From: a virus
Strand: one strand, 5' to 3'
Length of the DNA: 20,284 bases
Virus record (IMG/VR): IMGVR_UViG_3300017951_000179
Location: 1 to 20,284 of that record
In this document: in pieces, positions 3 to 1,554 of the stretch
Numbering within the stretch: the stretch's first letter is position 1
Layout of the letters: each line of letters begins with the position of its first letter
Translations under genes and position numbers: made by a program
The notes under the pieces: model-generated
What the model saw: the letters and a program-made list of their open reading frames with translations, nothing else
Told to the model about the DNA's origin: nothing
The model's database searches: none

Positions 3-746
3 GGCGAAAAGGTAGAAAAAGTCAAGACGATCACCTTCGAGAAAAAGGCCGTTCCTCAACCCAAGGCCGAACCCAAAAAGCCAGTCAAAAAGCTCAAGTT
101 CGGCGAAGCGCCCAAGACCACCACGGACGTGGCCTACGACTACAAAGCCAATTGGTCTGGCATGTACGAGAAGCGCCACCAGTACACCAAGGTCGTGGAC
201 GACATGGACGACTGGTCTGGCGATGGCTTCAAGGGAGTCAGGGCTGCTCAGTTCAAGCGGGCTCAGGAGCGCGGTGTGCAGTTGAACGCCTGGGAAAAGT
301 CAAGGATCAAGCTCCTCGACAAGGGCGAAGACAAGACGTTTGGGCGGATGGCGGACCGCATCGAGGATTTCATCAGCCGCGCTCCCAAATACAAGGGCGA
401 GGTTTATCGCGGGGCTGGCTTCAGCGACAAAGAGGCTGCGCTGGAATACATCAAAGGGATGAGCCAAGGCGGCAAGTCGCTGACCATGGACAGCTGGTCG
501 GCCAGTCAAGGCGTTGCTAACACCTTCGCGTCAGGCGAAGCCTTGGGTTTCGGTGGCGCTGTCTATGACCATCGAGTGGTTATGAAGATGCCGAACAAGG
601 CCGGCGCTCCGATCGAGACCCTGAGCGGCGTTGGCGCTGAGAAGGAAGTCCTTCAGCCTTCTGGCATCGAGTACAAGATCAAGAAAGTCACCACCAAGAC
701 CACGGGCAACGTGACTGTCTACGAGGTCGAGATGGAGACGCTCTAG
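3..746 (+). CDS. C-terminal part of phage head protein with ADP-ribosyltransferase-like domain (5' partial)
   Basis: The reading frame is open from base 3 with no stop, so the gene begins before the window. A GTG at 129 lies inside it and need not be the start. The first ~40 visible residues are a Lys/Pro-rich linker. The C-terminal ~150 residues carry the three signatures of the R-S-E class of ADP-ribosyltransferases in order: the Arg of VYRG (codon 408-410), a Ser-rich strand SWSAS (492-506), and an E-K-E pair (639-647) followed by VLQPSG, which matches the usual ExE-V-L-x-P-x-G ending. Such domains are known fused to SPP1 gp7-like or portal-type head proteins, where they may modify host or virion proteins. 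Position just before scaffold and capsid genes fits a minor head protein. The head-protein half lies outside the window, so that part is inference. The stop shares a CTAG palindrome with the convergent gene. Confidence 0.72.
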   Translation, partial: GEKVEKVKTITFEKKAVPQPKAEPKKPVKKLKFGEAPKTTTDVAYDYKANWSGMYEKRHQYTKVVDDMDDWSGDGFKGVRAAQFKRAQERGVQLNAWEKSRIKLLDKGEDKTFGRMADRIEDFISRAPKYKGEVYRGAGFSDKEAALEYIKGMSQGGKSLTMDSWSASQGVANTFASGEALGFGGAVYDHRVVMKMPNKAGAPIETLSGVGAEKEVLQPSGIEYKIKKVTTKTTGNVTVYEVEMETL

Positions 747-892
747 CCCTCCTGAACCTTAAAACCGGCCTCTTCGCCTAGCTTTTTCAAGAAGTCGGGG
801 TCTTTGGTGTCAAGGTCTTTGCCCACGCCATTGTCTTGAAGCGGCAAGGGCTCCGAGAGGCGCTGTTGCTGATTGACGGGCTTGCCTTTCAT
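743..892 (-). CDS. 49-aa protein encoded antisense to the structural operon
   Basis: The reverse complement reads ATG at 892 to TAG at 743 and gives a 49-residue, charged, probably soluble protein (starts MKGKPVNQQQRL, ends FLKKLGEEAGFKVQEG). Three things argue that it is real. Most codons end in G or C, as in the neighbouring genes. No sensible plus-strand ORF covers the stretch. Its stop and that of the upstream plus-strand gene are written in one CTAG palindrome, so it fills the gap exactly. A weak TAGG lies about 8 nt before the ATG. No membrane segment, signal or catalytic motif is visible and I do not recognise the family. It is the only gene in the window I accept on the minus strand. 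It could be a separately expressed accessory gene or a remnant. Confidence 0.6.
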   Translation of the reverse strand: MKGKPVNQQQRLSEPLPLQDNGVGKDLDTKDPDFLKKLGEEAGFKVQEG

Positions 893-929
893 GGCACAAA
901 CCTAGCAAAAAGCGGCCTGATTAGCCTGA

Positions 930-946
930 GCGCAGCATTTCTGTGC
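930..946 (+). promoter_or_regulatory. Hairpin directly upstream of ATG 949
   Basis: GCGCAG (930-935) pairs with CTGTGC (941-946) around a CATTT loop, with one G-T pair. It ends 2 nt before the ATG at 949, where a Shine-Dalgarno sequence would be expected and none is seen. It also covers the alternative GTG at 943. The function, perhaps control of translation start, is inferred. Confidence 0.4.
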
Positions 947-948
947 AG

Positions 949-1224
949 ATGTCTTCTGATCTTGTAGCCGTCCTGGTCGGTGATCAGCTAATCCTGGCCC
1001 GCAAACTCACCCTTGACGACGGTTCCGTCCAGTACCGAAACAAGTTTGGCCTAGCCTTAGACGGAGCCAAAGAAGTAGATGGCGAAAGCAAGCCGAAAGC
1101 AGCAAAAAGTCGCCAAAGTGCTCCGCGAGTACAAAGCGGGGACACTCCGAAGCGGCAAAGCAGGGCGCGGAAAGGGGCCCAAAGTAAAAAGCCGCAAGCA
1201 AGCTCTGGCGATAGCGCTGAGTGA
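949..1224 (+). CDS. Small phage protein of unknown function, long overlap with next gene
   Basis: This 91-residue protein begins MSSDLVAVLVGDQLILAR. A GTG two codons earlier (943) is possible, but the ATG is preferred because the GTG lies inside a hairpin. The first ~43 residues look like a compact beta-rich fold with hydrophobic strands (LVAVLVGDQLILAR, VQYRNKFGLAL). The remainder (from about VDGESK) is a Lys/Ser/Gln/Ala-rich tail that shares its DNA with the DUF6496-type gene in another frame, so it may be overprinted and unstructured. No family is recognised with certainty. The N-terminal half is well supported as coding. Whether translation really runs to 1224 is less sure, but the frame has no earlier stop. 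Confidence 0.55.
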   Translation: MSSDLVAVLVGDQLILARKLTLDDGSVQYRNKFGLALDGAKEVDGESKPKAAKSRQSAPRVQSGDTPKRQSRARKGAQSKKPQASSGDSAE

Positions 1225-1249
1225 AGCTCGCAAAATGAAGCGCCGATAG
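1079..1249 (+). CDS. DUF6496-type small basic protein
   Basis: An ATG at 1079 opens a 56-residue, strongly basic protein with the characteristic pattern KVLREYKAGTLRSG ... KVKSRKQALAIALSEARK. I recognise this as the DUF6496 family, found in phages and bacteria, function unknown. It starts inside the preceding gene in another frame and overlaps it by 146 nt. The family match shows that this frame is the conserved one here. The high Lys/Arg content would suit nucleic-acid binding, but that is inference. No clear ribosome-binding site is visible, so expression may depend on translation of the upstream frame. Confidence 0.75.
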   Translation: MAKASRKQQKVAKVLREYKAGTLRSGKAGRGKGPKVKSRKQALAIALSEARKMKRR

Positions 1250-1273: not shown

Positions 1274-1336
1274 ATGCCTTATCACTACGGCAAGCCAAAG
1301 CCGAAGGGCAAAAAGAAGGGAGGCAAAAAGAAGTGA
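1274..1336 (+). CDS. 20-residue MPYHYG microprotein
   Basis: ATG 1274 to TGA 1336 encodes MPYHYGKPKPKGKKKGGKKK. Microproteins with the same MPYHYG head and poly-Lys/Gly tail recur in marine cyanophage genomes, next to virion genes. The function is unknown. The extreme positive charge suggests DNA, RNA or capsid-interior binding (inference). The stop overlaps the next start as GTGA (1333-1336), a layout typical of translationally coupled genes and good evidence that this short frame is translated. A hairpin lies immediately before the start. Confidence 0.7.
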   Translation: MPYHYGKPKPKGKKKGGKKK

Positions 1337-1554
1337 AGAAAGGCAGCCGCGTTAGCTGGACTTATCAAGGCGTTCGCACCTATGGCACCGTCACCGGGAT
1401 GGGTGGCAAGCGGGCCACAATTACAGGGCCTAGCGGTGGCAAGATCACCCGCGTCGGCACTGACGACGATCCGGTAGTGAGAATCAAGTCCGAATCAACT
1501 GGCCGGCCTGTACTGAAGCGTCGCTCTCAGCTTCGGTCTGCTCCGAAGCGTTGA
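1333..1554 (+). CDS. HVA1/DUF2945-type Tudor-like small protein
   Basis: This 73-residue protein starts with a GTG that overlaps the previous stop by 4 nt. The sequence GSRVSWTYQGVRTYGTV ... GKITRVGTDDDPVVRIKSES ... PVLKRRSQL matches the HVA1 (formerly DUF2945) pattern: a VSW strand, a G-x-V turn, T-x-x-G-T-x-x-x-P, and a final K-x-x-S-x-L. The family is predicted to adopt an SH3/Tudor-like barrel. Its role in phages is not established. The very basic C-terminus (KRRSQLRSAPKR) may contact nucleic acid. It probably belongs to the same transcript as its neighbours. Confidence 0.7.
   Translation: MKKGSRVSWTYQGVRTYGTVTGMGGKRATITGPSGGKITRVGTDDDPVVRIKSESTGRPVLKRRSQLRSAPKR

What the first reader, a model, noticed from the sequence alone, without database searches (positions are those of the whole stretch)
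743..892. Hidden 49-aa gene on the opposite strand, sharing a CTAG palindromic stop with the upstream gene
A G/C-ending-codon ORF fills the gap between two plus-strand genes exactly, on the minus strand. Its stop and that of the head protein are both encoded in the same four bases (743-746). Antisense genes inside a late operon are rare and are often accessory or regulatory. Transcription from its strand would also oppose the head-gene transcript.
Basis: partly seen in the sequence, partly recalled or inferred. Interest (0 to 1): 0.55.

Follow-up and report, generated by a model that had tools for sequence, protein, structure and literature searches.

The report
Phage toxin's small antisense partner gene
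The small reverse-strand gene is real: in viruses related to those of marine cyanobacteria its relatives were found only right behind an ADP-ribosylating enzyme built into a virus head protein, and the two are swapped together, so it is most likely that enzyme's matching antidote.

Summary
The 49-aa minus-strand ORF (743-892) is a real, selected gene. Length alone means nothing here (62 minus-strand ORFs of at least 49 aa), but relatives keep the frame with dN/dS 0.10-0.18. The gene before it is the end of a MuF minor head protein with an R-S-E ADP-ribosyltransferase (ART) tail. The ORF belongs to an unannotated family of 49-65 aa proteins. All 14 contigs fetched by the small gene itself have it directly 3' of such an ART; among 62 capsid-related loci, 5 of 5 ART-tailed have it and 0 of 57 others (by profile). 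Six ART lineages carry it tail-to-tail on the opposite strand, three co-directionally, so antisense transcription and the shared CTAG stop look incidental. In near-identical phages the ART tail and this gene are replaced together, homology resuming at its start codon. A zinc-peptidase-like tail has its own unrelated partner; one giant head protein with both domains has both partners. Best reading: a MuF toxin/partner cassette whose small protein restrains its ART, as shown for the prophage MuF-ART Bxa and its binding partner Bsi. Linkage is shown; inhibition is inferred. New: the partner family, its opposite-strand placement and the cyanophage-like setting.

The parts
743..892 (-). partner A gene, 49 aa (MKGKPVNQ...GFKVQEG)
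   Evidence: relatives on 4 contigs without in-frame stops, dN/dS 0.10-0.18; family profile matches in nine ART lineages
3..746 (+). C-terminal 247 aa of the MuF minor head protein; ART tail within about 120-743 (the window begins inside the gene)
   Evidence: PF03496 E 2e-4, below its cutoff; phrog_16619 minor head protein E 9e-30; full gene in L005, same lineage, aligns to a cyanophage MuF; AF2 model pLDDT 88, PDB ART toxins and effectors at probability 1.0
408..410 (+). invariant Arg of the R-S-E ART site (YRG)
   Evidence: alignment A6, R97 invariant in 10 of 10 rows
492..497 (+). invariant Ser-Trp of the S-x-S-like motif (SWSAS)
   Evidence: alignment A6, S125 W126
639..647 (+). invariant Glu-x-Glu (EKE) of the ART site
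   Evidence: alignment A6, E174 and E176
743..746 (.). CTAG shared by the two stop codons; not conserved as a palindrome
890..892 (-). start codon of partner A; DNA homology to phages with another ART/partner cassette resumes here
   Evidence: L005 position 2988 = window 890
893..948 (.). leader between the two divergent start codons; identical in two phages with different antisense partner genes (L005, L006), its first 24 nt outside the matching DNA where the partner is on the plus strand (L008)
949..1224 (+). next late gene, unknown function, outside the cassette
   Evidence: similar genes at the same place in L006, L018, L023 (by eye); no Pfam or PHROG match for the 943-1224 frame

Best explanation
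The ORF is the cognate partner gene of the ART tail of the MuF head protein, and together they form one exchangeable cassette. Shown by sequence: it is a protein-coding gene under purifying selection; in what was examined it occurs only directly behind C-terminal ARTs of one family; it follows the ART rather than the phage backbone; it occurs in either orientation; another MuF tail has its own, different partner. Inferred: the ART, part of a head protein, is carried in the virion and injected with the DNA, where it ADP-ribosylates host targets (probably on arginine, from the E-x-E motif; family knowledge); the roughly 50-aa protein, predicted mostly extended with one short conserved helix, binds the ART domain in the producing cell and keeps it inactive until packaging, protecting the infected cell from the newly made enzyme. 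It is an antidote (immunity) protein acting by direct binding.
For: Association: 5 of 5 ART-tailed against 0 of 57 other MuF loci fetched by capsid similarity, Fisher 1.5e-7, not corrected for kinship; presence was scored with a profile that includes members from those loci. 18 of 21 contigs fetched by the ART profile have it. All 14 contigs fetched by the small gene itself have an ART next to it. Cassette swap: phages 97-98% identical in MuF up to L005:1946-1959 show no match beyond that until 2988, the small gene's start codon. Divergence of small proteins tracks that of ARTs: r = 0.82, p = 0.0001 for 10 pairs; r = 0.32, p = 0.014 with one member per close clade. Specificity: a zinc-peptidase-like MuF tail has a different 63-64 aa partner; of 24 contigs fetched by that partner 23 have that tail directly upstream (the 24th is cut), none has an ART there or partner A in the DNA fetched; L101's giant MuF protein has both domains and both partners lie behind it. 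Precedent: 89.4% of 191 MuF toxin genes against 25.5% of 952 short MuF genes are followed by an ORF under 150 aa (PMC5576092 section 8); the MuF-ART Bxa of a Bacteroides prophage is bound and blocked by the small protein Bsi (PMC11699363 sections 6 and 7).
Against: No binding or neutralisation was tested and no complex could be modelled. The model of a family member (L096) is only moderately confident (pLDDT 73.8, pTM 0.42). Net charge is not conserved (pI 4.1-9.7), so no simple electrostatic picture holds. L122 has a C-terminal ART but no profile match (another 56-aa ORF follows); S-2L has an ART and no convincing match; in P-SS2 and L123 the ART is internal and partner A is not found. The immunity idea was framed for temperate phages; no recombinase was found here and no copy in the genome collection, though both tests are weak. 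No promoter for the minus-strand gene was recognised, and opposite-strand placement is awkward for a protein that should be made together with the toxin.
Confidence: 0.65

Rival explanations
1. The small protein is a cognate helper, not an inhibitor: it folds, stabilises, loads or activates the ART tail in the capsid, or acts with it in the host after injection.
For: The same linkage, swap and co-divergence data. Phages without evident lysogeny need no immunity for a lysogen (weak; KBS-S-2A, a capsid relative without the ART, is reported as probably lytic in PMC3751600, whole text).
Against: The MuF precedents with measured activity, Bxa/Bsi and Apk2/IapK, are inhibitors; a zinc-peptidase tail with its own unrelated small partner fits tail-specific immunity better than a general packaging role.
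Confidence: 0.19
2. A moron or hitchhiker whose place behind the ART is history, with an unrelated function.
For: No direct functional data; small phage genes are often carried as morons (general knowledge).
Against: Adjacent to an ART in all 14 contigs found by the gene itself, in nine ART lineages, in both orientations, and on two clearly different MuF backbones (the L005 type, and L100/L101, which match it at most 28% over 116-171 aa).
Confidence: 0.1
3. A regulatory antisense transcript: transcription from the minus strand dampens the head-gene message, the peptide being incidental.
For: Tail-to-tail placement and 4-nt overlap in the window.
Against: The amino-acid sequence is under purifying selection; three related lineages encode it on the same strand as the head gene; in L100 and L101 the two genes do not overlap.
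Confidence: 0.03
4. A spurious ORF.
For: Many minus-strand ORFs of this length exist by chance here.
Against: dN/dS 0.10-0.18 and a profile reaching nine lineages, two of them (L107/L108 and L120) outside the set it was built from.
Confidence: 0.01

Closest known systems
Bxa / Bsi, MuF-ART of a Bacteroides prophage and its structural immunity protein (PMC11699363, outline and sections 6 and 7)
   Same: N-terminal MuF domain, C-terminal ADP-ribosyltransferase, and an adjacently encoded small non-enzymatic protein that binds it and neutralises its toxicity.
   Different: A second, enzymatic immunity protein (BAH) is present there; Bsi is at least 92 residues long (mutants K89, Y90, E92) against 49-65 aa here; whether Bsi is homologous was not tested; here mostly the opposite strand, in cyanophage-like viruses.
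MuF polymorphic toxins with a downstream small ORF (Jamet et al. 2017, PMC5576092, passages and section 8)
   Same: MuF domain first, variable toxin-like C-terminus (ART is one of their types), short ORF behind it.
   Different: Described as exclusive to temperate phages and prophages; here no sign of lysogeny was found (weak test); the small gene is mostly on the opposite strand; its family has no match in the libraries searched.
Apk2 / IapK / Aph1 MuF module (PMC12226406, passages)
   Same: A MuF toxin followed by a partner that occludes its active site; occluding partners work mainly on their own toxin.
   Different: Other enzyme (adenosine 3'-pyrophosphokinase), prophages of Streptococcus, Mannheimia and Pasteurella, two partner genes.
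T4 Alt-type injected ARTs (PMC9503650, passages; T4 details recalled)
   Same: ART carried in the phage head and injected with DNA.
   Different: Alt is a separate protein, not a MuF tail; no cognate small partner gene is known to me (recalled).

Membership tests
MuF polymorphic toxin / partner module | MuF (SPP1 gp7-like) domain N-terminal in the toxin protein | tested here: met
   PF04233 above cutoff in L006, L008, L089, L098, L100 and TIGR01641 in L096; for the window's own gene inferred from L005 (same lineage), whose full gene aligns to the KBS-S-2A MuF at 44.7%, because the window starts inside the gene
MuF polymorphic toxin / partner module | variable C-terminal enzymatic domain | tested here: met
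   no tail, ART tail or zinc-peptidase-like tail on related MuF cores
MuF polymorphic toxin / partner module | ORF under 150 aa directly behind the toxin gene, specific to the tail type | tested here: met
   exceptions L122, L123, P-SS2, S-2L
MuF polymorphic toxin / partner module | small protein neutralises the toxin | not testable with these tools
   needs a co-expression or binding assay
MuF polymorphic toxin / partner module | carried by temperate phages | tested here: inconclusive
   PF00589 matched 0 of 10 and 0 of 4 records, PF00239 0 of 10, but P-SS2, said in PMC3751600 to have an integrase, gave none either
R-S-E mono-ADP-ribosyltransferase | R, S-x-S-like and E-x-E residues | tested here: met
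   invariant R97, S125-W126, E174/E176 in 10 of 10 rows of A6
R-S-E mono-ADP-ribosyltransferase | ART fold | tested here: met
   AF2 pLDDT 88, pTM 0.83; the 50 best-listed PDB matches by fold are ART toxins and effectors, probability 1.0, query TM 0.42-0.60, rmsd 5-10
R-S-E mono-ADP-ribosyltransferase | NAD-dependent transferase activity | not testable with these tools
   enzymology needed
Bsi (structural immunity protein of Bxa) | sequence homology of the small protein | not tested
   the Bsi sequence was not fetched; only its length bound and role are known
Known protein families for the 49-aa protein (Pfam, PHROGs, NCBIfam, PADLOC, PDB) | profile match | tested here: not met
   no match for the window protein in Pfam or PHROGs at E up to 1, NCBIfam or PADLOC at E up to 0.1; family profile best PDB E 0.62; one relative, L006, weakly hits phrog_23001 of unknown function, E 0.004

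The most novel reading that the evidence does not exclude
A new family of about 50-residue ART inhibitors used by lytic viruses of marine cyanobacteria: MuF toxin/antidote cassettes would then not serve lysogen immunity but self-restraint during virion production, and possibly protection of the infected cell from ARTs injected by competing phages with other cassettes. The antidote gene would be driven from its own minus-strand promoter in the leader shared by different cassettes, so that it can be made before the late genes.
Probability: 0.3. Interest if true: 0.75.

Novelty: new variant of a known kind. Interest (0 to 1): 0.55.

Why it matters
It turns an unannotated 49-aa reverse-strand ORF into a testable toxin/antidote-like pair in viruses related to phages of Synechococcus and Prochlorococcus, a setting for which a search of the held library for cyanophage, MuF and ADP-ribosyltransferase together returned no paper. 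Two tail-partner pairs (ART and zinc-peptidase-like) serve as natural controls for each other, and both partners are small enough for direct expression and binding tests. It may offer a very small protein inhibitor of an R-S-E ADP-ribosyltransferase, and it shows that a partner gene can be missed when it lies against the strand of a late operon.

Tried and rejected
Antisense regulation: rejected as the conserved function because the family also occurs co-directionally. CTAG stop palindrome as a functional element: not conserved, although P-SS2 has the same CTAG sharing between its minor head gene and an annotated minus-strand 67-aa gene that is not a profile relative. S-H1's annotated minus-strand ORF at about the same place (AZB50564.1): its MuF has no ART and the family profile finds nothing there. 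S-2L: an unannotated antisense ORF overlapping the ART end looked similar by eye, but the profile gives 1.5 bits, outside the conserved motif, so it is not counted. A conserved AGGCTAAT stretch in the leader looked like a minus-strand promoter, but the same motif read as wTTAGCCTG also precedes plus-strand genes, including the scaffold gene and loci without the antisense gene, so it is not claimed. Sigma-70 scan of 600-1700: no promoter-like site. Arginine-decoy and charge-complement ideas: residues not conserved. tblastn of 'phages' with small proteins: none with the window's, only E of 8 to 9 with L101's. Genome collection (one genome per species, 84,980): 14 and 54 pattern matches, none a relative; this is limited to exact short peptide patterns. 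In viral contigs too, the small-family scans confirmed only 7 of 266 and 6 of 47 pattern matches, so distant members without an ART could be missed. Structure of the small protein: too weak for a fold search, not searched. One literature search was too wide to be of use.

Full report
Observation. Reading the window directly, the minus-strand ORF 743-892 starts with ATG, ends with TAG, has 49 codons, and shares CTAG (743-746) with the stop of the plus-strand gene that ends at 746. The next plus-strand gene begins at 943 or 949, so the gap is filled except for a leader of 50-56 nt. In this window 62 minus-strand ORFs reach 49 aa (21 if only ATG starts count), so length proves nothing.

It is a gene. 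tblastn-confirmed relatives lie on four IMG/VR contigs, on the minus strand behind the same head gene. Against L087 the changes fall 7, 1 and 14 on codon positions 1, 2, 3 of the minus frame, with no indel in the ORF, while the DNA beyond the start codon has indels. dN/dS is 0.096 (window-L009), 0.156 (window-L087) and 0.177 (L009-L087); the non-synonymous fraction is lower than expected from random placement of the same changes (p = 0.013 for L009, 0.0005 for L087; 2000 permutations). All three plus-strand frames over the same stretch contain stops.

The upstream gene. The window holds the last 247 aa of a minor head protein. Pfam gives the ADP-ribosyltransferase exoenzyme model below its cutoff (E 2e-4) and PHROGs a minor head protein (E 9e-30). 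The complete gene in L005, the same lineage, has an N-terminal part that aligns to the MuF protein of cyanophage KBS-S-2A (44.7%). Aligned with nine relatives the tail keeps Arg, Ser-Trp and Glu-x-Glu in 10 of 10 rows, the R-S-E signature (family knowledge). AlphaFold2 gives pLDDT 88 and pTM 0.83; the 50 best-listed PDB matches by fold are ART toxins and effectors at probability 1.0, with query TM 0.42-0.60. The capsid protein is 78% identical to that of KBS-S-2A and 69% to Prochlorococcus phage MED4-184, so the window comes from a virus related to siphoviruses of picocyanobacteria; its own host is not known.

The family. Phages fetched by capsid or ART similarity with different ART tails turned out to have a small gene directly behind the ART, sometimes on the minus and sometimes on the plus strand, with a shared C-terminal motif like (D/E)xGF(L/M)EALAxxxGFKF. 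Iterating gave nine ART lineages. On the opposite strand: window/L009/L086/L087, L006 and its near-copies, L089, L100, L101, L107/L108. Co-directional: L018/L098, L023/L096, L120. L107/L108 and L120 were not in the profile that found them (E 2.8e-13 and 1.2e-20). In the ART tree the three co-directional lineages form one group (100/100), so one change of orientation suffices. Co-directional members overlap the head gene by 4 nt (ATGA; L023/L096, L120) or 1 nt (TGATG; L098); opposite-strand members overlap it by 4, 11 or 35 nt or leave 1 or 5 nt.

Linkage. In the capsid-fetched set 62 of 80 loci include the MuF stop; 5 have an ART tail and all 5 have the small gene, 57 have no ART and 0 have it (Fisher 1.5e-7; the five are four lineages, some of the 57 are near-copies, the test ignores kinship, and presence was scored by a profile built partly from these loci). 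Of 21 contigs fetched by the ART profile 18 have it; the three without are L122 (C-terminal ART in a phage with other neighbours; a 56-aa ORF without profile match follows), L123 (ART internal) and L124 (cut by the contig end). Among named phages P-SS2 (ART internal) and S-2L (31 residues follow the ART) have no recognisable member. The 14 contigs fetched by the small gene itself all have an ART next to it; in one of them (L018/L097) the ART frame is interrupted. The members sit on at least two different MuF backbones: the cores of L005, L096, L098, L089 and L120 are 40-79% identical, while L100 and L101 match these at most 28% over 116-171 aa.

Cassette exchange. Between L005 (window lineage) and L006, L118 and L119, DNA is 97-98% identical up to L005:1946-1959, inside MuF; then no match until 2988, which is the small gene's start codon (window 890). 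The 56-nt leader is identical between L005 and L006. So the ART tail and small gene were exchanged as one unit, keeping the leader that precedes the minus-strand gene. L006, L118 and L119 carry one and the same cassette, so this is one exchange. In L008, a third cassette, the tail is peptidase-like (HEVGH; weak M90 and ATLF matches below cutoff), its small gene is on the plus strand (ATGA overlap), and homology resumes only at L005:3015, so that the first 24 nt of the leader are outside it.

A second pair as control. The partner of the zinc-peptidase-like tail (63-64 aa, MTPxEA...) is shared by L007/L008 and MED4-184 (33% identical); MED4-117 also has both tail and partner, and KBS-S-2A and S-H1 have neither of the two tails and neither partner. 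A scan with it gave 24 contigs: 23 match the zinc-peptidase tail profile directly upstream (22 show HExGH, one is cut before it), the 24th is cut; none has an ART there and none has partner A within the DNA fetched. In L101, a 106-kb virus record, the MuF protein (more than 1664 aa) has both a zinc-peptidase domain (HEMGH, 58.5 bits) and the C-terminal ART, and behind it lie both partners: the ART partner tail-to-tail and a homologue of the zinc-peptidase partner (E 5.5e-6). Domain and partner therefore go together in what was examined, with the exceptions listed above.

Mechanism. The linkage, exchange and co-divergence (r = 0.82, p = 0.0001; 0.32, p = 0.014 with one member per close clade) are shown. 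That the small protein binds and silences its ART is inferred from MuF toxins in general (PMC5576092: passages and section 8), above all from Bxa, a MuF-ART of a Bacteroides prophage neutralised by the binding protein Bsi (PMC11699363: outline, sections 6 and 7), and from Apk2/IapK, whose occluding partners work mainly on their own toxin (PMC12226406: passages). That MuF-fused ARTs are packaged and injected is the view of PMC9503650 (passages) and was not tested here. A helper role in folding or loading is the main rival. No minus-strand promoter was recognised and no expression data exist here.

Temperate or lytic. No tyrosine or serine recombinase was found in the records searched (0 of 10, 0 of 10 and 0 of 4), and neither the ART nor the small gene in the genome collection of 84,980 species. 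Both tests are weak: most records are fragments, the scans need exact short peptides, and P-SS2, reported with an integrase in PMC3751600 (whole text), also gave no match. KBS-S-2A itself is reported there as probably lytic, but it has neither ART nor small gene.

Novelty. The window's small protein has no match in Pfam, PHROGs, NCBIfam or PADLOC, and its family profile has none of note in PDB sequences; one relative weakly hits phrog_23001, function unknown. A search of the held library for cyanophage, MuF and ADP-ribosyltransferase together returned nothing; cyanophage with polymorphic toxin gave four papers and MuF with immunity protein, ADP-ribosyltransferase and phage gave five, seen as listings except for PMC5576092, PMC11699363 and PMC9503650. 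MuF-ART with a small binding partner is a known kind (Bxa/Bsi); the opposite-strand partner, the new partner family and the cyanophage-like setting make this a variant.

Noticed in passing
L007:1374-1565, L008:3498-3689, L093:3833-4024 and L130-L153: A second MuF tail/partner pair: zinc-peptidase-like tail (HExGH) with its own 63-64 aa plus-strand partner; 23 of 24 contigs fetched by the partner have the tail upstream, the 24th is cut.
   Followed up: yes
L101:5131-10125 (-): A giant MuF protein of more than 1664 aa carrying a P-loop kinase-like stretch (by eye), a zinc-peptidase domain and a C-terminal ART, followed by at least two partner genes.
   Followed up: partly
L102:4989-5192 (P-SS2, ACT65593.1): Annotated minus-strand 67-aa gene tail-to-tail with the P-SS2 minor head gene, sharing CTAG as in the window, not a profile relative; possibly a third partner type for another MuF tail.
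   Followed up: partly
L052:1725-3761: MuF gene with an in-frame insert of about 270 aa that starts with C and ends HN before CRSTT, like an intein (by eye).
   Followed up: no
window 920-928 and 1587-1595: Repeated wTTAGCCTG motif shortly before plus-strand start codons, also in several relatives; a possible late-gene leader element, but its count is not above chance in the window as a whole.
   Followed up: partly
L018:2761-3270: The MuF-ART gene is interrupted within the ART on this contig while a close relative (L098) is intact; sequencing error or a broken gene.
   Followed up: no
window 1333-1554: Small late gene matching the Hva1_TUDOR domain above cutoff (PF11160, E 6e-8), found between MuF and scaffold genes in many of the relatives.
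   Followed up: no
window 1079-1249: Lysine/arginine-rich 56-aa plus-strand gene matching DUF6496 (PF20106, E 5e-15), overlapping the 943-1224 frame; found in some relatives only.
   Followed up: no
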